Shown here piece after piece: positions 21,412 to 32,163 of a DNA stretch of 64,000 bases (the stretch's first letter is position 1; the number at the start of each line of letters is the position of its first letter). This DNA is from Sporisorium sorghi. Taxonomy: Eukaryota; Basidiomycota; Ustilaginomycetes; Ustilaginales; Ustilaginaceae. The notes beneath the pieces are model-generated. The model saw only the letters and a program-made list of their open reading frames with translations, was not told where the DNA came from and made no database searches. The stretch spans positions 1 to 64,000 of the forward strand of contig JALCCG010000099.1 of the NCBI GenBank assembly GCA_023212695.1, given 5' to 3'. Both the position numbers and the translations under genes were made by a program.

Positions 21412-22332
21412 TCATGAAGGCTCCTTGCTTGACGGCGACGATTGTGAGATGCCTTTCGTAGTGCTACTGAGCTGCAGAGGCTTGAAATCTGGCAGGCCCG
21501 ACTTGACGTCTGAGCCCTTCATGCGATTGCTCTTGATCTTGTTGCTCTCGTCGACGTAGACGCTGTACCTGCTGTACAGCACGATCTCTGCCACTGCAGT
21601 CAGAATCGCGACCAACATGCTAGCCAACACCTTGTTGCCAACACTAGCATTGCCGCTCGCCCACCACGCAGCGGTGGCGGTAGCGAGTGTCGAGAGGAAG
21701 ATGTTGAGGATGACACTGAGTTGACGCTGTGCATCCTTCCATGCTTGTTCCTCTCCCTGTCCCACGAGGGCGCGAGAGGAGGAGAGGTGCGGAGCAGCAG
21801 CGGCGTGCGAAGAAATTCGTTGATGCAGGGACAGCGTAGGATCGACGCCGGCAATGTTGACGTACGAGGTGGGGATCTTGTAGCCACCTGAAGCAGCGTT
21901 GTTGGCGGTCGAGGTGGACATGCGTTGATACTCTGCCTGCTCTTGCGCGCGTCGAATGGCTGCTAATGAATCCTCAAGCTGCTTCGACCGTTCAAAGACG
22001 GGTTTGGGTGGGACGTAGACGCGCGATCCAGCGACGAGCGCAGACAGCTTGAGCTTAGCCGTATCGATGCTCAGCTGCGATGCTGCTCGACCTCCTTGCG
22101 CCCAGGATGCGATGCGGATCAGCACCGAATGGTCCAGCACGATCGGTGCCGCCGAGTCAGTCGCAGTGCTGACCGTCGGAACAGCCGGACTGTCTGCCGT
22201 CATCTTGGGCCGCGCAGGCTGATCCTCTAGCGCGGTTTTGAGGGATTGCACCGCATCGTCTTCCGATCCGCTCTCCTGCGCCAGCCGTCTGAGCAGCTGC
22301 GAGTTGGCTGTAGACAGCACGAGTTTTGTCAT
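21412..22332 (-). CDS. VMA12: VMA12/TMEM199-type V-ATPase assembly factor
   Basis: A 306-residue ER membrane protein. The family hallmark is at about 127-160 (GSRVYVPPKPVFERSKQLE, then an Arg/Gln helix ending AEYQRM). Two membrane spans follow at about 220-240 and 247-265 (ILNIFLSTLATATAAWWA; VLASMLVAILTAVAEIVLY), separated by a short Gly/Asn turn. Vma12 works with Vma21 and Vma22 to assemble the Vo sector of the vacuolar proton pump in the ER. The ATG at 22332 is chosen. The frame stays open for 121 more codons upstream, but that part includes a run of Phe coded by a poly(A) tract on the plus strand and is leader. The cytosolic N-terminal half and C-tail are Ser/Ala-rich. Confidence 0.82.
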   Translation of the reverse strand: MTKLVLSTANSQLLRRLAQESGSEDDAVQSLKTALEDQPARPKMTADSPAVPTVSTATDSAAPIVLDHSVLIRIASWAQGGRAASQLSIDTAKLKLSALVAGSRVYVPPKPVFERSKQLEDSLAAIRRAQEQAEYQRMSTSTANNAASGGYKIPTSYVNIAGVDPTLSLHQRISSHAAAAPHLSSSRALVGQGEEQAWKDAQRQLSVILNIFLSTLATATAAWWASGNASVGNKVLASMLVAILTAVAEIVLYSRYSVYVDESNKIKSNRMKGSDVKSGLPDFKPLQLSSTTKGISQSSPSSKEPS

Positions 22333-22716
22333 CTCCGTAGATGGTCGAGGTTGAGAAAGCAATAGCGGCTCAAAAGTCGGCGTCCGTTGCTCCACATCGT
22401 GCGAGTCTTTTCGGCCGGAAAATACTCGAACTGCTGCGTCGCCGAACAAAAAAAAAAAAAAAGAAAAAGTGTTGTTCTCTTTTTTGATGTGAAACATGCA
22501 GCGTCGATCCTTTTCCCTCGGGGAACCCTTGGGCTCTTGTCTTTCCAATTCGGATAAAGGAAGAACACTGCACAATCCAAGAACTTGGTTCTCCTTTCTT
22601 CGATCATTCGTACTCAAATGTCGCATCGAAGAATGTTGGGATAAAGGTCTGATCAATGTTGCACTGGCCTCGAAGCGGTGTCGGTCCAAGCGCAAAATGG
22701 CCGAATGTGGGGTTGC

Positions 22717-22744
22717 TTTTTTTTTTTTTTTTTTTTTTTTTTTT
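22717..22744. repeat. Poly(T) run, 28 bases
   Basis: A pure T run followed by CTTTAAAAAATAAATAAAT, forming a local AT-rich island in GC-rich DNA. Confidence 0.9.
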
Positions 22745-23070: not shown

Positions 23071-23528
23071 GCGTTGCTGTGAAGCACAAGCACGAGCTTG
23101 ACCCACGCTCAAGCACCTAGATTGAGCGGAGGAGCTTAGCAAACACACGCCGCCGTCTTGCATTCCTTCCCGTCTGTAATCGCAAGCTTCTCTAGTCGCT
23201 TCTTCCATCACCTCCATCATCACTACCGTCGCTAAGTTGTAGCATCTGTTTTCACTCGGATCAACTACTACAACTTCCGGCGTGGCTTCGTATCGCGCCA
23301 CTTTCTCATCAGCTTCGCCACGGCATTCGAGTGCCACCCGCACGGTGTCTTCATCGGTCACCTAAAAAGCAGCTTCTTTTCACCCTTCATGTCGACATCC
23401 TCATTCTAGCTCGGGACGGCTGGTTGTCTAGCTTCGACCGAGGTGGTGTCGACATCTGCTGCGCCGCTTTCTCATTTCAGTCGCAACAGGCTCGTTGAAC
23501 AATCTTCGCGTCAACATCGCACCGCAAG

Positions 23529-26500
23529 ATGGAGGGTCGCACTCTCAATGTCGCCGCACCGGTGTTTCAGCCGGCTGCGCTCGCCAGCAGCAATGTCGAC
23601 ACACCACGACAGCCGTCGCCTCTGCCGTCAGGAGCGAGTACACCCGCTCAATCGTCCAACCAAGCAGGTCGTCCTTCATTGGTGAGTATACCCTTGTCCA
23701 TTCTCCTCCTTGCTCCGTAGCAGGCCAGCAGCTGTGGCGGTCTTGTTGTCAGGGAAAGGCACCTCCCGCCCGCACATCCTTGCTGACGCTTTGAATCTCC
23801 TTCCTCTGCAGCTCTCGCAAATACAAAATCAAATGACGCCTGTCGGCGGCGTGCCAGGCGCAACTATGCACATGAACGCCAACTCTCGCCCTTTCGTTCC
23901 TGGCGGAGCTGCCAACCCCAGCGTCTTCAAGCCTCACACTCCAGTCACACCGTACCAACTCCCTCCACCACTTGCTGCAAACCCGTCCCGATCGCCGCTT
24001 CCACCTCACAGGCTAGGCCATGGCATGAACAATGCAAGCGTCCAGCTCACGGGTCTTCCAGCCTTCCTCGCCACTCCGCCCATCATCAACCACATGCCTC
24101 ATCCTGGCGGCTATGTCGGCCCGCCATCACCGATCTCTCCCGGCGCTTCTGGTCCTCCGAGCCCTTACTTCATGCCAACGGGGCAGGTCAGCCTGGGTGG
24201 TCTACCGCATCCTGCAGCTGCCATGAACGGCAACATGAAGTTTAGAAAAGGAAAAGGCCTTCCACCCGTCACTCCGCTCAAGACGACTGGTCACAACTCG
24301 ACCCCGTCCATCTCGATGAACCCAGCCGCATTCGCTGCAAGTCTTGCTGCTGTCAAAGCAAAGAAGAGGATCGTCGTGTCGTTGCCAGCTGAACGTCCTT
24401 TGCCAGACGACGAGGCGCTGCTTGCTCAATCGGAGCCAGAGCTCCTCGAAGATCAAGTCAAAGAGACTGGCGAGACGAGCAGAGCGGAGGCAGTCAGGCG
24501 TCGTCGTGCGCGTGCTGCCGCCTCAACACGAAGCAAGTGGATTCAGCGACTGCCTTGGGGCCCAGAACAGCACGATCGCACTCCGTTGGTCGAGATGCCC
24601 AAGGATGCCATCGTCACATGCGAGACTTATCCTGAACCGTGGCCTCATTCCCTCGGTCTGCCAGACACGATCGACATCTACCTTCCAGGTAGGAGTGCTT
24701 GGGACGAGTATCTCGAAATGCGCTTCGAGGAGCAGCAGATGGAAGCCGAGGCTGCCGACATCGATGCCGATCCCGCTATGCCCTATCACGCAGCTCTTTT
24801 GCCGCCCAACACGGCCGCTTTCCAAGCAGACCGCAGGGGACGCAGCCTGTCCATTTCCACGCCCGCGGACCCGAGCATGGTCACCTTTAAGCTCAACCGC
24901 TTCCTTCAATCGCAGCAGCAGCAGCTGCAGCAAGACCCGAACCAGCCTTTGGAGCGAGACTCTCCTGCAAAGTCGAACAAAGCCAATGAGCCATTTGGTC
25001 GCTTCCAGACGGACTTGCCTGATCGTCTCCGAGAGGCATTTGCGCGCCGTGTTGGCGAGAATGCGGATCTCCAGCTTCGACCCACGCTCAAGCATAGCCA
25101 TACCATGTCGCTCGGCATGCCCAGCTCAGGTGGACCCTTCGGCCCCGAGGTGTTTAGCGCTCTGGACATGATCCGCGCCAACTCCGATGGGCCGCCTTCC
25201 AAGCCTCCCTCCGAAGCCCAGGATCTGCCGGAAAAGCCGCTGTCTGACTCCGAAGCAATGTTCGGCAGGTCAGACATCTATCTGTCCAAAATCACCGAAG
25301 AAAGCGCCGAGGGCGAGCCCGAACCTGAGCGTACTGACGTGCGACACGACGCAACAAAGGGCACGAGCAGTGGCAACTGGCAGCAGCTTGGAAGAGGTTT
25401 TGGGTACGAACCTGAACCACGAACTGCGCAGAACGGCTCATCCAGGAAGCATGCCCGCCAAACCTCGAGGATCTCAGTCAGCACATCCCATCGTGCTGGC
25501 GAAGAGAGCGAGGAGCTTCTCAATGACGACGACGACGACGACGAAAACGTTGAAATTCGCACCAACCCTAGCGAGGATGCCGACGCATCCGACTTCGAAG
25601 AAGAGCCTCACGAGTACGGGCCTGATCATTGGCGTGCGCATCATGGCAGCGTCCACTTGTCTGCCTTTGGCGACGCTCGTGGTCGACACGGCTACGATGA
25701 CATGTCACAGGCAAGCGACGACGACAGCCTCAGAGATTCTCTGACGCCCTCCGACGAGCAGTTCAGCAACCCTTCTGACGAGGAAGCTGCGCGCGAGGAG
25801 CGCATCTTGCGTCGACAGCATCGCGCTGCTGAGCGTGCTGCTCGTCAGGAGCGGAAGGAGCGTCGACGAGGTCGAGCCAACACCAACAACACTCTGCCCA
25901 GCAGCAGCATCGGCGAGGGCGAGCTGCACGAACATGGCTCCTACGCGCTCGATCGCGAAACGACGAGCTTCCGTCGTAACGAGCTTCGACGAGGCTCGCA
26001 GCACCACGACATCATCAGCAATCCCTCAGACGAGGTGCAGTCCGATCTGGATGACTCGATGACCTTTGGTCACAACGAAAAGTCGTACCTTCCTGATCAG
26101 AGCAAGCGCTTCAGTCAGGATTTCCGCTTTCCGCCAACGAAGCCGCCTGTTGCAGCCATCGGCTCACAAGCTCATCATCCAAGCCACGCCGCCTTTTCGG
26201 ACAGCCGTCCACCCATGTCTGGCACGCTTGGCCGAGCTTCGGGCATCTCGCTGCTCAATCCTGATGCCAAGGAGTTCAAGTTTGGCGGTGCAAGCACCGC
26301 TACGAGAGCTGTCTCTGCGCCCATGCCCAGCTTGCACACTGCGTCAGATTCAGCGCAAGGCCAGCACTTCCGCCTTCCAAGCATCAAGACGTCCAGCTTC
26401 GGCTCGATTGCAGAGATGGCTGCCGATGCTCCCCATCTCAATGTGGGAGCCGCACCCTTCACGCCTGGTGCCTTTACTTTCAAGACCAGTCAGACGCTGC

Positions 26501-29500
26501 AAGTGCCAGAAATGTCGTCGCGATCAGCGTCGCCAAGCTTCGCTGTGGCGGGCGTCGACGGTGATGTCGACGGAGATGTCGACGGACGCGAGGTCGAGAA
26601 TCGAGAGGTGCAAGGTCGAGAAAAGCGAACACGCTACGGACCTATCGACTATGAAAGTGAGGACGACGTACGCTATCGTATGTACAGCACCAGCCCTCCT
26701 CGACCGCAGGCATCTGCGGCAAGTATCGAAGGACCCTTGCGTAGCTTCAGCACGCTCGCCAGGCAAGGTCCGCCGCCGTTCCTCCCCGAGGGCTACACGC
26801 AGCAGCAGCGATCGGTCTCGCACGAGTCGCGGTTCACTGCAGATGCGCCTTCATTTGTGCCTACCTGGGCAAAGGGCGCTCAAGGCTTTGGCGGTTCGAC
26901 AAGCTTCAAACGTCCATCGCTGCCTGACTGGGGCCAGCAAGCGAAACCATCGCAGAACGATGCCGGGCAAGGAGCTCTCCCCTCAATCTTTGATCCTTCC
27001 TTCTTCACAAGAGAGACGGGTAGCAAGGCGATTCCCATCAAGCGTCCTCCAGAAGGTGATCGTACAAACAATGCGGATCAATCTCGTTCAGCTCAGCAGC
27101 CATCGTCGTCTTCGTCGGTGTCCATGTCTCTCGACAGTCTGCAGGGCAATGTAGCACTCACTACAACGATCGATGGTGGTCAGACCTCGACAGAGACTCT
27201 CAAGCCTCCTGCTGCCTGGCAGAGATCAGTGTCCTCTCGGCCAGCGGTACGATCGCAGCCTATGCACATCCCCATGGATCCCCACAGCTCGCACTCGTCC
27301 TCCGCCTCGCTTGCTTCTGACGTGGGCTTTGGCACTGCGATCCGATGGGGAGGACGACGTTCGTCTTCAAGCATGGGTATGTCGTCTGTCGACAGGCGAC
27401 TGCGCAAGTCACAACGCGGCCACTACGATTCGCAAGACGCTAGCGGCAATGACGACGACCAAAATGAGGACGACGATGAAGATCTAAGCGACTTTGTCGA
27501 GGAGATTGTGGATCGTGTGGACAAGGCTCTGGAAGGATGGGCCGGCAAAATCCTGGATGAAGTGACCATCATGGGCCAGGTGCGCCCACACCCGCGCGAT
27601 GTGGCTGCTGCCGCCGAATTCGCTTTGGATCAAGACAAGCTCGTAGAAGACATGTCGAGGCGCCTGGAAGAAGCGTTGGACGTCCACCTTGCATCTTCAT
27701 TTTCGCTCCATGCTCGAAAAGCGACCGGTGCGTCGGACGAGACGCAGACGACAATTCGACCGTTCCAGCCGAGGAACCCTTCACCGGATGACAAGATGAC
27801 CACTTCGGGACTCGTTGATGCACCGGGCGAATGGGACTTTGACTACGTGCAGGAGGTCCTCGAGGCCAAGCTGGGCGACTTTCGCAAGCAGATCGAATCG
27901 AGCATGGCTCAGATTATCGAGTTGCTCGAGACGCCCGGTGTCGTCGCTTCGGGTGCGAAGCACGTCGGAAACGGTGACGGCATCAACGGCTCTGTTCTGC
28001 CATCCGACTTTGCTGAAGGTGTTATGACGCGACTCGTGGCGCAGCTTCAATCGCTTTTCGAGAGACATACCACGTCAGCCAGGGAAGTTCAGTCGGATTC
28101 GGATGCCAAGCTGCAGCAGGCTATGCAGTCCAAGCTGGACGAGAATCTGGTTCTCCTCTCAGAGAAAGGGGCAGCCGACCGTTCCAGCCTCCAGCAGATG
28201 CTCGAGGCGGATATGCATGGATTGGAGCGCTCGATCAGCGAGGTCGGCAACGCTGTCAAGGACCATCTGCAATCTGCGCTCGAGGTGACTTTGCCCTCGC
28301 TGCTGGAAAGCAAGGCGGCGAGCGATGCAACTCTGGCGGAAAGGCTGACCAACAAGCTTGGCCAGGCGCTTGGTCCTGTCTTGTCAGAGGAGCGCAGATG
28401 TCTGCTAGAAGAGCATCAGAGGAGCCGAGACCTCTTGCTGGAGGCGGTGCCATCCTCATCTCGAATTGCACAGTCGACGGTCGAGCTGATCGAGCCGCTA
28501 GTCAAGAGCCTCAAGAGCGATCCGATCGACTCGGACGCGCTCGTGTCGCGCTTGGCAGAGGTGATTGGCAAGCAGTCGATCGAGCACATGGTGGATCTGA
28601 ACCCGGTGCTTGCTCTTCTAGAACCGCTGATCGTCAAGCATGAAGATGCGCGAGCTTTCAGCAAGAAGATACTGCAGCGTCAGGAGGACACGGAACGCAC
28701 GCTCTCGGAACTACCCGGTGCTATCAACGCCAAGACGGAGATCTTCCTCTCGAGTGCGAGCGAAGCGAGCGAGAAGCAAGGTCTGATTCTGGAAAAGATC
28801 GCCGAGATCAGGGCCGAGCTTAGGCGCGAGGCGGATCAATCTTCGAATGCGGTGGCGTCAATCGAGACGGAAGCTCTGCACAAGAAGCTCGAAGACCTGG
28901 CACGGGACAGGCTGTTGTCACAAGAGACGGCCGAAAAGACGCTCGGCGAGCTGGCTGGTGTGTACCACGTGCTCGACTCTTCGTACCAGGCCTTGTCTAG
29001 ACTGGAAGCTCAGCACACTACGAGCGAGGAGTCTCACAGAGAGCTTACGGCCAAGCTGGAGAAGCAAGCTCAGGCGAGTGCCAACCTGGCGCGCGAGCTT
29101 AGAGAGGCTGAAGGCCGTGCGACACGCGCAGAAGCTGCTCAAGCCGAAGCAGCCGCTAGGCTGGTGTCTTCGGACAAAGAGACGGTGATGTTGCGGGAGC
29201 AGCTTGCCCAAATGACAGCCGAACTCGCCGCTTCCAAAGCCGAAAGGGCTCAGGAGCGCGAAGCATCGGCCAAAACTTTAGCAGAAGCGGTAGCCAGAGC
29301 CGACCGAGCCGAGGCTGCGAGCGTCGAAACGCAAGACCGACTGGGCCGTTTGCTGGAACAGGCTACGGTGGCAGAGCGCGAGGCATACGAGTCAGCCAAA
29401 TCAGTGCTGCAGCGTGCATCCAAAGCAGAAGGGCAGCTCGCCGCTCTCGAAAAGCGCATCGCCGAACAGGACAACAAGATCGCCACCCTGCAGCAACTGT

Positions 29501-30087
29501 CAGCTACGCAAAAGCAGAAGGCAGCACAGAGCCACCAGAAGCTGGCTGAGGGCGAGAAGCGCGTCAAGGAGCTTGAAGCCAAAGCGGAGCAGCTTGCCGA
29601 GGCTACGGTGCGCCTGGGCGTGCTCGAGGTAAAAGCGAGCGAGCTGGACGATACGCGCCGCCAGCTGCAGCAGAGCGAGGAGAGGGAAGCGCACGCCACG
29701 GAGCAGGTGAGGCGGTATGACGAGCGCTTCCAGCAGCTGGAGCGGGACCTGGTCGAGATGAAGGAGGGCTTTGTGGAGAAAAGTGTGCACGAGGGGGTGG
29801 AGAAGCGGCTGGAGGAGAGCCGGAAGCTGGTCGAGCAGTTGCAGGCGAAGTTGGCGGCGGCGGCGTCAACTTCACCCAGAACGTCGGATGGGTGGGAAGC
29901 GGTCGAGCAGCAGCCGAGGACGGGTGCGTGGGCATCCATGCATGCTCCGCGGATCCGCGTCGAGGAGGACCAGAGCGATGAGTCTTTGGACTTTGCTGGG
30001 AGATCGAAGCGGTCAGTGTCGTTCGCGTCAACGGCAAGTTACAGCAAGAAGGAGGTCGAGGTGGACGAGGGTGGGTGGTGGTCGTAA
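23529..30087 (+). CDS. UPA2: UPA2-like scaffold of endosomal mRNA transport, two exons
   Basis: Exon 1 is 23529-23681 and exon 2 is 23812-30087, with a 130-bp phase-0 intron (GTGAGT donor, CTGCAG acceptor); the protein has 2142 residues. Four PAM2-like motifs, which bind the MLLE domain of poly(A)-binding protein, are visible: LNVAAPVFQPAA (6-17), MNANSRPFVPGG (72-83), LLNPDAKEFKFGG (865-877) and LNVGAAPFTPGAF (927-939). The middle is disordered and charged. Residues about 1300-2070 are coiled coil, densest from 1715. The end is GGWWS, giving GWW at 2139-2141. This matches Upa2 of Ustilago maydis (about 2.1k residues, four PAM2, dimerising coiled coil, terminal GWW needed for endosomal placement), which works with Rrm4 and Pab1 to move mRNAs on early endosomes. 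The extra PAM2 in exon 1 supports the short first exon. Confidence 0.88.
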
Positions 30088-30456
30088 GCGCCACCACGAG
30101 GGAGGAAGTCATCACTGTCATTATACCACTTTCATCAGTCAAATTGCATGGTTTTGAATTGCCAGCTGCGGCTAAGCGTGAGCTAAGAATGGTACTGTCT
30201 GGGAAGAGTTGGTCTGACGAACGAAATGACAGGCATGTTGGTGTGAGCGTGTGGCGAAGCGAGTGTTCGTTGCGATTCCTGTCTCAGGGTCCTTTGAGAA
30301 GAAACGCGGGAGTCGGGCAGAACGCATGGCTGCACTCCACCACGTTTTTTTTGCGCTTCTCTGTGCACTTCCTTCTCGAAGCACCCCTAACCATCCCTCG
30401 ATTCACACGCAACCTTGCAGCCGCTGATCGAACCTTCGCTCGACAGAGGCAGAAAG
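30088..30456. other. Intergenic, UPA2 / SMN homologue
   Basis: 369 bp in a head-to-tail arrangement. It holds the UPA2 3' end and a short C/T-rich leader with a T-run near 30346 before the ATG at 30457. No gene is seen. Confidence 0.5.
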
Positions 30457-31698
30457 ATGTCAAGACGAGTCGTCTCGTACAGCGACATCAGCGACGATGC
30501 TCCTCCGGCTCCACCATCGTCAGCGCAGGCGGAAGCCGGGCCCTCATCGTCCACTCATCACCTGGCCCACGTGGAAACGAATGGTAATGCGGATGCATAT
30601 GGGAGCAGCAACGGTGCTGGAGGAGGCGGTGGGAAGAAGAGAAAGCGCAAACCTGCGGCTCGTAGTGATGCAGGAGCAGGGGGAGCAAGAAAGGCGATGC
30701 TGCACTGGGACGACCCGACGTATGCTGCCAGCGTGCCCGAGGCGGGCGATGCCGAAGGGTATCGCGTGTACGATGCGAGCGGCTATACAGCGCAACACAA
30801 CGGAGACCTGACCGGCCGAGAAGAGGAGGCGGGTGATGAGGATGAAGAGCAGTGGAACGCTGCTGAAGCATCACAGACCGGCATCGACCAGCCGTACACC
30901 GCGTGGAAGTACGACGAGTGGGGGGAGCCGTACTCTGCTTCCAACGGGCACCTCGACGATACCTCTCACTACGACGAGTACGGTATCGAGCAGGATGACT
31001 GCGCTCTGCACTCTGCCGATTCATCCGACTCTGACGCCGCCTCGCTGCCGTTCGTCATACCCGACGTATCCGCGTTCCACCGCACCAACGATCCACCCTC
31101 TTCCCTCCCCCTCACCGCCCCCACCTCCACGCTCACACACCGCCCACCACCCTCAGTCGGCGGCGGGGGCCGCACTTTGACACACGCCGAAATCTGGGGC
31201 GCCAACAGCATCGTCAGCGCGTACAACGCCGCCCTCCGCCAGTTCTGCACCATGCACCAACTCCCCCTATCCCACACGGAAGAAGTGGCGGCAGCGCTGT
31301 GGACCGATGCACCGGCGCACGACTCGCTGCTTGCGCTGCAGGTGCGCGATGATGCTGCGCAGGCTGTTGCGCTTCGTGCTGCTGCACAAGAGGCGGGTGG
31401 AGCGGGAGGCGGGGAGAAGAAGGAGCGCGGTAGGGTCGTAACGAAGGTGCCGCACGCGCATCTAGAAGGTAATGCGGCGTGGAAGAAGGCTGTTAAGACT
31501 GTTCAGTGTACGCCCAATCGCATAGGTGCTGTCAACCCACCACAAGCAGCCAACACGAAGGAAACGACAAAAGCGGAGCGTACACGGGAAGGAAAGCGGG
31601 TGGAGAGCGAGGCGCAGCAGCAGCAGCAGGATCAGCAGGAACAGCTGCACGCATACTGGTACGCTGGGTATCGCGCTGGGATCGCTGCTGCTGCTGCT

Positions 31699-31734
<36 letters not shown>

Positions 31735-32163
31735 GGAGAGGCTGCGGCGGCGAGTGGAGAGGCTGCGGCGGATGCTTTGGGATACAATGTCGATGGGGAC
31801 GCTGCTGCTGCTGAAGCTGCTGAAGCTGTTGGTGGTGACACCGATACCGCTTCCAATGCCAATCACACAGCCGTTGCTGACGCCGTTGCAGCCGACTCAC
31901 CTATCAATGCTATGAAGACGGCTGTTGGCGACGACACGACCATCGACGCTGCGAAACACGCTCCTCTGCACGCTAGCTCAGCCAGCGAATCAATCGTCGA
32001 CGCTCTCCCTGGCCCTCACCCTGTCGCTCATGCCGATCAGGACGCAGTGACCGCTACCAACGACGCAGCCGACATCGCTAGCCTTGTGGGCGACGCCGCC
32101 AAACTCGAGCCTGACGCCAACGCTGCTGCCGCTGACGCTGCCTCCGCCGCTGAGACGACCTAG
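30457..32163 (+). CDS. SMN-like protein with a long alanine-rich C-terminal tail
   Basis: A 568-residue protein with the two hallmark segments of SMN (survival motor neuron; Smn1/Yab8 in fission yeast), the core of the complex that loads Sm proteins on snRNAs. The Gemin2-binding-type helix is LTHAEIWGANSIVSAYNAAL (Trp at 247), though the usual Asp-Asp after the Trp is Gly-Ala. The YG-box is AYWYAGYRAGIAA (Trp at 401), the self-association helix. No Tudor domain is seen, as in other fungal homologues. In known SMN proteins the YG-box is close to the end. Here it runs into about 16 Ala residues (GCT/GCG repeats at 31685-31731), two SGEAAA units, and 130 more Ala/Asp residues. The N-terminal 240 residues are acidic and disordered, with a KKRKRKP nuclear signal. 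The ATG at 30457 (AAGATGTCA) is the first; upstream codons have none. Confidence 0.72.
31685..31731 (+). repeat. GCT/GCG triplet repeat coding a poly-Ala run
   Basis: About six GCT/GCTG-type Ala codons followed by about nine pure GCG codons, directly after the YG-box of the SMN homologue. Pure triplets are prone to slip, so length may vary between strains. Confidence 0.85.

What the first reader, a model, noticed from the sequence alone, without database searches (positions are those of the whole stretch)
23529..30087. UPA2 ortholog: a four-PAM2, coiled-coil, GWW-terminated mRNA-transport scaffold
The protein (2142 residues with the first exon) has PAM2-like motifs at about 6-17, 72-83, 865-877 and 927-939, a long C-terminal coiled coil and a terminal GWW. 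These match Upa2 of Ustilago maydis, described as a core part of mRNA transport on moving early endosomes. The third motif (LLNPDAKEFKFGG) lacks the usual Pro after the Phe-x and may bind weakly. The first PAM2 lies entirely in a tiny first exon, so annotation from the ATG-less second exon would lose it.
Basis: partly seen in the sequence, partly recalled or inferred. Interest (0 to 1): 0.75.

Follow-up and report, generated by a model that had tools for sequence, protein, structure and literature searches.

The report
Smut fungus Upa2 mRNA-transport scaffold
This is a smut fungus's version of Upa2, a known scaffold protein that helps carry messenger RNA on moving endosomes; it is an ordinary family member, but it seems to carry five rather than four docking motifs, and the one thought weakest is among the most conserved.

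Summary
The gene is real and as described: two exons (23529-23681, 23812-30087), consensus splice sites, 2142 residues, one copy found. It is most probably the Upa2 ortholog: 35 homologs, best 84% (Sporisorium scitamineum), and Rrm4, Upa1 and Pab1 orthologs lie in the same genome. Direct alignment to U. maydis Upa2 was not possible. Two corrections. (2) Motif 3 (LNPDAKEFKFGG) is not a decayed site: further searches reached mushrooms (268 homologs, 120 listed and examined), and strict LNPxAKxFxFG occurs in 112 of 120 there and 22 of 37 smut-side proteins. Motifs 3 and 4 and a terminal GW[W/Y] are the shared core; the exon-1 PAM2 was seen only on the Ustilaginales side. F-x-F recalls the F-x-Y of Upa1's PAM2-like motifs, so motif 3 may have its own specificity (untested). 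AlphaFold suggests a mostly disordered N half, long C-terminal helices and a small folded module near 232-371.

The parts
23529..23681 (+). exon 1, residues 1-51, start codon and PAM2 motif 1
   Evidence: same kind of N terminus in 12 of 18 models P0002-P0019
23544..23573 (+). PAM2 motif 1, LNVAAPVFQP, residues 6-15; Phe aligned in 12 of 18 near and 0 of 17 distant homologs
23682..23811 (+). intron, 130 nt, GT...AG
   Evidence: homologous models read on into LSQIQNQM at the same place
23812..30087 (+). exon 2, residues 52-2142 and stop
   Evidence: one match in the genome
23872..23901 (+). PAM2-like motif 2, MNANSRPFVP, residues 72-81 (Ser instead of Ala)
24352..24771 (+). predicted small folded module, about residues 232-371, two strands and several helices
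   Evidence: AlphaFold2 block pLDDT 54-90 in an otherwise low-confidence half; no Pfam family at E <= 10 for residues 198-396; no clear PDB match, inconclusive
26254..26286 (+). PAM2 variant motif 3, LNPDAKEFKFG, residues 866-876, F-x-F-G in place of F-x-P
   Evidence: strict form in 22 of 37 smut-side and 112 of 120 Agaricomycete-side proteins; Pfam PAM2 E 0.0024, below cut-off; the only non-homopolymer match of N-P-x-A-K-x-F-x-F in the genome
26437..26481 (+). PAM2 motif 4 with trailing FTF, LNVGAAPFTPGAFTF, residues 927-941
   Evidence: AxxFxP followed by F[TSN]F in 36 of 37 and 116 of 120
26611..26628 (+). conserved QGREKR block, residues 985-990
   Evidence: GREKR in 35 of 37 and 117 of 120
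26833..26862 (+).
   Evidence: Phe in 18 of 18 near and 17 of 17 distant homologs; not aligned in Agaricomycetes
28723..29880 (+). long coiled coil, about residues 1689-2074; block 1921-1960 is its most conserved part
   Evidence: home-made heptad score, AlphaFold2 helices, mean identity 0.68 in 17 distant homologs for 1921-1960
30073..30084 (+). C-terminal GWWS
   Evidence: terminal GWW in 32 of 37 smut-side proteins and 98 of 120 Agaricomycete-side ones; GW[W/Y] in 115 of 120

Best explanation
The gene encodes Upa2, a long scaffold of endosomal mRNA transport. Its mostly disordered N-terminal half displays several PAM2-type short motifs that dock onto the MLLE domain of poly(A)-binding protein Pab1; the C-terminal coiled coil dimerises the protein; the terminal GWW attaches it to the endosomal transport complex. 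PAM2-Pab1 binding, dimerisation and the GWW requirement are published for U. maydis Upa2; for this protein they are inferred from homology and anatomy. Added here: five motif sites, of which motifs 3 and 4 are the core shared with mushroom homologs, and motif 3 is a conserved F-x-F variant rather than a degenerate site.
For: Gene model. 35 homologs, best 84% over the full length. PAM2-like motif count. Long coiled coil and GWW. Residues 52-1228: 920 of 1177 with pLDDT < 50. Own genome holds an Rrm4 ortholog (best structure matches 7pze, 8s6n and 8s6o; the last two are named RRM4), a Upa1 ortholog (ankyrin, FYVE and RING domains; a PAM2 stretch and two acidic FVYP/FIYP stretches read by eye) and Pab1 (four RRM, MLLE). 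One match in the genome. Published properties of Upa2: passages of PMC9249222 and PMC12852828.
Against: No alignment to U. maydis Upa2 was possible, so orthology rests on architecture and the smut family. Published work says mutating all four PAM2 motifs removes Pab1-MLLE binding without disturbing transport (PMC9249222): Pab1 docking by PAM2 is not the essential act, and if five sites exist in U. maydis one of them does not suffice for binding in that assay. Pfam's PAM2 model matches only motif 3, and below its cut-off. Motif 5 has Phe, not Leu, at the first anchor in 16 of 25 smut-side rows and does not align in Agaricomycetes (mean identity 0.13 there). The models of both halves have low confidence (mean pLDDT 64.0 and 43.4).
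Confidence: 0.92

Rival explanations
1. It is a Golgi tether of the Uso1/p115 type, as the database names say.
For: Several hits are named 'related to transport protein USO1' or 'Transport protein USO1'; a long coiled coil is present.
Against: No Uso1 domain in a Pfam scan of the exon-2 ORF at E <= 1; PAM2-type motifs, GREKR and GW[W/Y] conserved across the family. That the name is a coiled-coil-driven automatic label is inference.
Confidence: 0.03
2. Motifs 2, 3 and 5 are chance or decayed look-alikes, and only motifs 1 and 4 are working PAM2 sites.
For: Only motifs 1 and 4 keep LN and F-x-P together; Pfam matches are weak or absent; motif 5 is not aligned in Agaricomycetes and motif 2 is weakly conserved there (0.24 against 0.18 overall).
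Against: 0 of 5000 shuffles reach five sites. Motif 3 mean identity to this protein is 0.70 in 24 smut-side and 0.72 in 21 Agaricomycete rows against 0.41 and 0.18 for residues 52-1228. Motif 5 keeps F in 25 and P in 24 of 25 smut-side rows.
Confidence: 0.15
3. The N-terminal half works mainly through its other conserved blocks (the 232-371 module, NPS[D/E] repeats, GREKR, LPSI) and the PAM2 sites only fine-tune it.
For: Stretches of the module have mean identity 0.52-0.67 in smut-side and 0.34-0.39 in Agaricomycete rows, against 0.41 and 0.18 overall; GREKR in 35 of 37 and 117 of 120; the published four-site PAM2 mutant still transports mRNA (PMC9249222).
Against: In Agaricomycete rows motifs 3 and 4 (0.72, 0.58) are more conserved than the module. 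No function is known for these blocks from the passages I saw.
Confidence: 0.35

Closest known systems
Upa2 of Ustilago maydis
   Same: Multiple PAM2 motifs, coiled coil, terminal GWW, with Rrm4, Upa1 and Pab1 in the same genome (published features from passages of PMC9249222, and PMC12852828)
   Different: Five PAM2-like sites counted here against four published; which four were counted is unknown to me, as the 2019 paper is not held
Upa1 (FYVE adaptor with PAM2 and PAM2-like motifs)
   Same: A PAM2 motif for Pab1; the F-x-aromatic core of its PAM2-like motifs (FVYP and FIYP in this genome) recalls F-x-F of motif 3
   Different: Upa1 has ankyrin, FYVE and RING domains; a Pfam scan of this protein shows none of them. 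Motif 3 lacks the acidic stretch and the Tyr
LARP4/LARP4B PAM2w variant
   Same: A variant PAM2 that changes around the anchoring aromatic residue (PMC7356810, passages)
   Different: PAM2w swaps the anchor Phe for Trp; motif 3 keeps Phe and has Phe instead of Pro two residues further on
Uso1/p115 tethers
   Same: long coiled coil; database label
   Different: no Uso1 domain found; mostly disordered N half with PAM2-type sites

Membership tests
Upa2 | multiple PAM2 motifs in the N-terminal half | tested here: met
   five PAM2-like sites by pattern; the published number is four; binding not tested
Upa2 | long C-terminal coiled coil (dimerising) | tested here: met
   coiled coil; dimerisation itself not testable here
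Upa2 | C-terminal GWW motif | tested here: met
Upa2 | reciprocal best match with U. maydis Upa2 | not testable with these tools
   no hit shows the name U. maydis, paper not held; unnamed P0009 may be it but was not identified
Upa2 | co-occurrence with Rrm4, Upa1 and Pab1 | tested here: met
Upa2 | shuttling on early endosomes with mRNPs | not testable with these tools
   needs microscopy
PAM2 motif (Pfam PF07145) | score over the curated cut-off of 20 bits | tested here: not met
   17.2, 17.9 and 16.5 bits for motif 3; peptides 2, 4, 5 and exon 1 no match; in the family scan 13 of 20 members match PAM2 at E <= 10, best 1.3e-6
PAM2 motif (consensus xxLNxxAxEFxP, PMC4466420) | anchors L, N, A, F, P | tested here: met
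   motifs 1 and 4 carry all five; motif 5 lacks L and N, motif 2 lacks L and A, motif 3 lacks P but alone has the E before F
Uso1/p115 tether | Uso1 head domain | tested here: not met
   no such family at E <= 1 in the Pfam scan of the exon-2 ORF

The most novel reading that the evidence does not exclude
Motif 3 of the Upa2 family (LNPxAKxFxFG) is an ancient, separate class of MLLE ligand: it keeps the canonical PAM2 part (LNxxAxxF) but carries an aromatic residue two positions after the anchor Phe, where the FVYP core of Upa1's PAM2-like motifs has its Tyr. It could read a different MLLE surface from canonical PAM2, for example that of Rrm4 MLLE1 or MLLE2, whose partners are reported as unknown, and so tie Upa2 to the mRNA transporter as well as to Pab1.
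Probability: 0.15. Interest if true: 0.65.

Novelty: new member of a known kind. Interest (0 to 1): 0.33.

Why it matters
Upa2 is described as a core scaffold of the U. maydis endosomal mRNA transport system (PMC12852828). Knowing which docking motifs are widely shared (3 and 4, GW[W/Y]) and which are confined (exon-1 PAM2) tells where to look for the function that the published four-PAM2 mutant did not reveal. The conserved F-x-F variant, the fifth site and the predicted folded module are concrete, cheap targets for peptide-binding and deletion tests, and several family members are labelled USO1 in public databases.

Full report
Gene model. The window encodes on the + strand a two-exon gene: exon 1 23529-23681 (51 codons), intron 23682-23811 (GTGAGT...CTCTGCAG), exon 2 23812-30087. 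The spliced protein has 2142 residues with a single terminal stop. A search of its 23.17-Mb, 469-contig assembly with the exon-2 protein found one match, itself. Exon 1 is supported by homologs: 12 of the 18 models P0002-P0019 begin with a PAM2-bearing N terminus of the same kind and 6 lack it, so annotations do lose it. No transcript data were available.

Identity. A search of 5.8 billion proteins gave 35 homologs. Those that show an organism name are smuts and related Ustilaginomycotina (taxonomy recalled), except one filed under the plant Cichorium endivia; others are unnamed. The best are Sporisorium scitamineum 84%, S. reilianum 81% and S. graminicola 78%, each with 100% of the query covered. 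Several are named 'related to transport protein USO1', but the exon-2 ORF shows no Uso1 domain in Pfam at E <= 1. The architecture matches what papers say of U. maydis Upa2: a dimerising scaffold with four PAM2 motifs that bind the Pab1 MLLE domain, and a C-terminal GWW crucial for endosomal binding (PMC9249222, passages; PMC12852828, passages; PMC10688622, passages, for the scaffold role and Pab1 binding). The original Upa2 paper (2019) is not held and no hit shows the name U. maydis, so a direct alignment was not made.

Partners. The same genome holds an Rrm4 ortholog (781 residues; its C-terminal part matches 7pze, 8s6n and 8s6o, the last two named RRM4 in the PDB; that all three are U. maydis is recalled). 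Pfam sees two RRM stretches and one MLLE over the cut-off there; two further MLLE matches at 16.8 and 16.7 bits fall below it, fitting the three MLLE domains of the published protein. A Upa1 ortholog has ankyrin repeats, FYVE and RING, a PAM2 stretch (13.4 bits, below cut-off) and two acidic stretches ending FVYP and FIYP (read by eye). Pab1 has four RRMs and an MLLE. MLLE matches over the cut-off occur only in the Pab1-like and Rrm4-like genes.

PAM2 motifs. Five, not four, PAM2-like sites are present: 6 LNVAAPVFQP, 72 MNANSRPFVP, 866 LNPDAKEFKF, 927 LNVGAAPFTP, 1059 FTADAPSFVP. A relaxed pattern finds 5 against 0.40 expected (0 of 5000 shuffles); it was written after seeing the sites. The stricter pattern finds 3 (motifs 1, 4, 5) in residues 1-1270 against 0.08 expected (0 of 5000). 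The anchor Phe of motif 5 is kept in 18 of 18 near and 17 of 17 distant homologs, of motif 3 in 18 and 16, of motif 4 in 18 and 16, of motif 2 in 17 and 11, and of motif 1 in 12 and 0 (the six near misses for motif 1 are models that start later). Against this, Pfam's PAM2 model matches only motif 3, below its cut-off, and published work reports that mutating four sites abolishes Pab1-MLLE binding, which would leave any fifth site too weak alone in that assay.

Deeper family. A profile of 17 smut-side sequences reached a Psilocybe cyanescens protein (E 5.8e-40). A search with that protein gave 268 homologs, itself among them; the 120 listed were examined. Where named they are Agaricomycetes (taxonomy recalled); a few are unnamed. 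They keep GREKR (117 of 120), NPS[D/E][D/E] (120 of 120), terminal GW[W/Y] (115 of 120; GWW 98) and strict LNPxAKxFxFG (112 of 120); the smut-side numbers, this protein included, are 35, 35, 32 and 22 of 37 (26 of 37 for a looser F-x-F form). Shuffled sequences gave the strict form 0 times in 3140. In an alignment of 25 smut-side sequences and 21 of the 120, the residue two after the motif-3 Phe is Phe in 18 of 25 and 21 of 21, and Pro in 5 of 25. Mean identity to this protein (24 and 21 rows): motif 3 0.70 and 0.72, motif 4 0.71 and 0.58, motif 2 0.56 and 0.24, motif 5 0.65 and 0.13, residues 52-1228 overall 0.41 and 0.18. So motifs 3 and 4 are the shared core, motif 1 was seen only on the Ustilaginales side, and motif 5 is conserved in smuts but not aligned in Agaricomycetes. 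After motif 4 an F[T/S/N]F follows in 36 of 37 and 116 of 120. Published phylogeny, as cited in PMC7550108 (passage), says Upa2 is missing in ascomycetes; its presence in basidiomycetes at large may already be known.

Motif 3. The canonical part of PAM2 is LNxxAxx[F/W]; what follows is variable among solved complexes (PMC7356810, passages). Motif 3 has the full canonical part. Its F-x-F resembles the F-x-Y of the PAM2-like core FVYP of Upa1 (PMC4466420, passages). A conserved Tyr absent from PAM2 is critical for Rrm4 MLLE3 (PMC12852828); that it is the Tyr of FVYP is my inference. The resemblance is in spacing only: motif 3 has no acidic stretch. Rrm4 MLLE1 and MLLE2 are reported to lack the glycine for the anchor Phe and not to bind PAM2 or PAM2-like sequences, which counts against them as partners.

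Structure. AlphaFold2 of residues 52-1228 (mean pLDDT 43.4) gives 920 of 1177 residues below pLDDT 50, with motifs 2-5 in low-confidence stretches, and a compact module at about 232-371 (block pLDDT 54-90) with two strands and several helices. Residues 198-396 have no Pfam match at E <= 10, and the half has no clear PDB match, which is inconclusive. Residues 1230-2142 (mean pLDDT 64.0) are mostly long helices, among them about 1648-1728, 1750-1917 and 1929-2038, and a home-made heptad score marks 1689-2074.

Mechanism. Most likely the coiled coil dimerises the protein, GWW attaches it to the endosomal complex, and the N half presents several PAM2-type motifs to Pab1 on poly(A) tails. For this protein all of that is inferred from homology; nothing was measured.

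Verdict. An ordinary, well-conserved ortholog of a known protein, with a missed fifth site, a conserved F-x-F PAM2 variant and a predicted module worth testing.

Noticed in passing
L011 1280-3622 (Rrm4 ortholog): The Rrm4 ortholog itself carries two PAM2-like stretches just before its last RRM (VSASAAPFVP and MSPSAPLFAP, read), a possible direct link to Pab1; the phrase 'PAM2 motifs in Rrm4' is not in the main text of PMC9249222.
   Followed up: no
25564-25575, 25768-25779, 26020-26031: Three copies of an N-P-S-[D/E] block (residues 636, 704, 788) in the N-terminal half; at least one NPS[D/E][D/E] in 35 of 37 smut-side and 120 of 120 Agaricomycete-side homologs. Function unknown.
   Followed up: partly
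P0018: A homolog filed under the plant Cichorium endivia is 56% identical over 68% of this smut protein: probably fungal contamination of a plant assembly.
   Followed up: no
23389-23409: A six-codon upstream reading frame (ATG...TAG, read) about 120 bases before the start codon; whether it is transcribed is unknown.
   Followed up: no
21412-22743 (- strand): The divergent neighbour encodes a Vma12-type V-ATPase assembly factor (Pfam E 1.6e-33).
   Followed up: no
30391-32160: The downstream open frame is Ala-rich and has no Pfam match at E <= 0.01.
   Followed up: no
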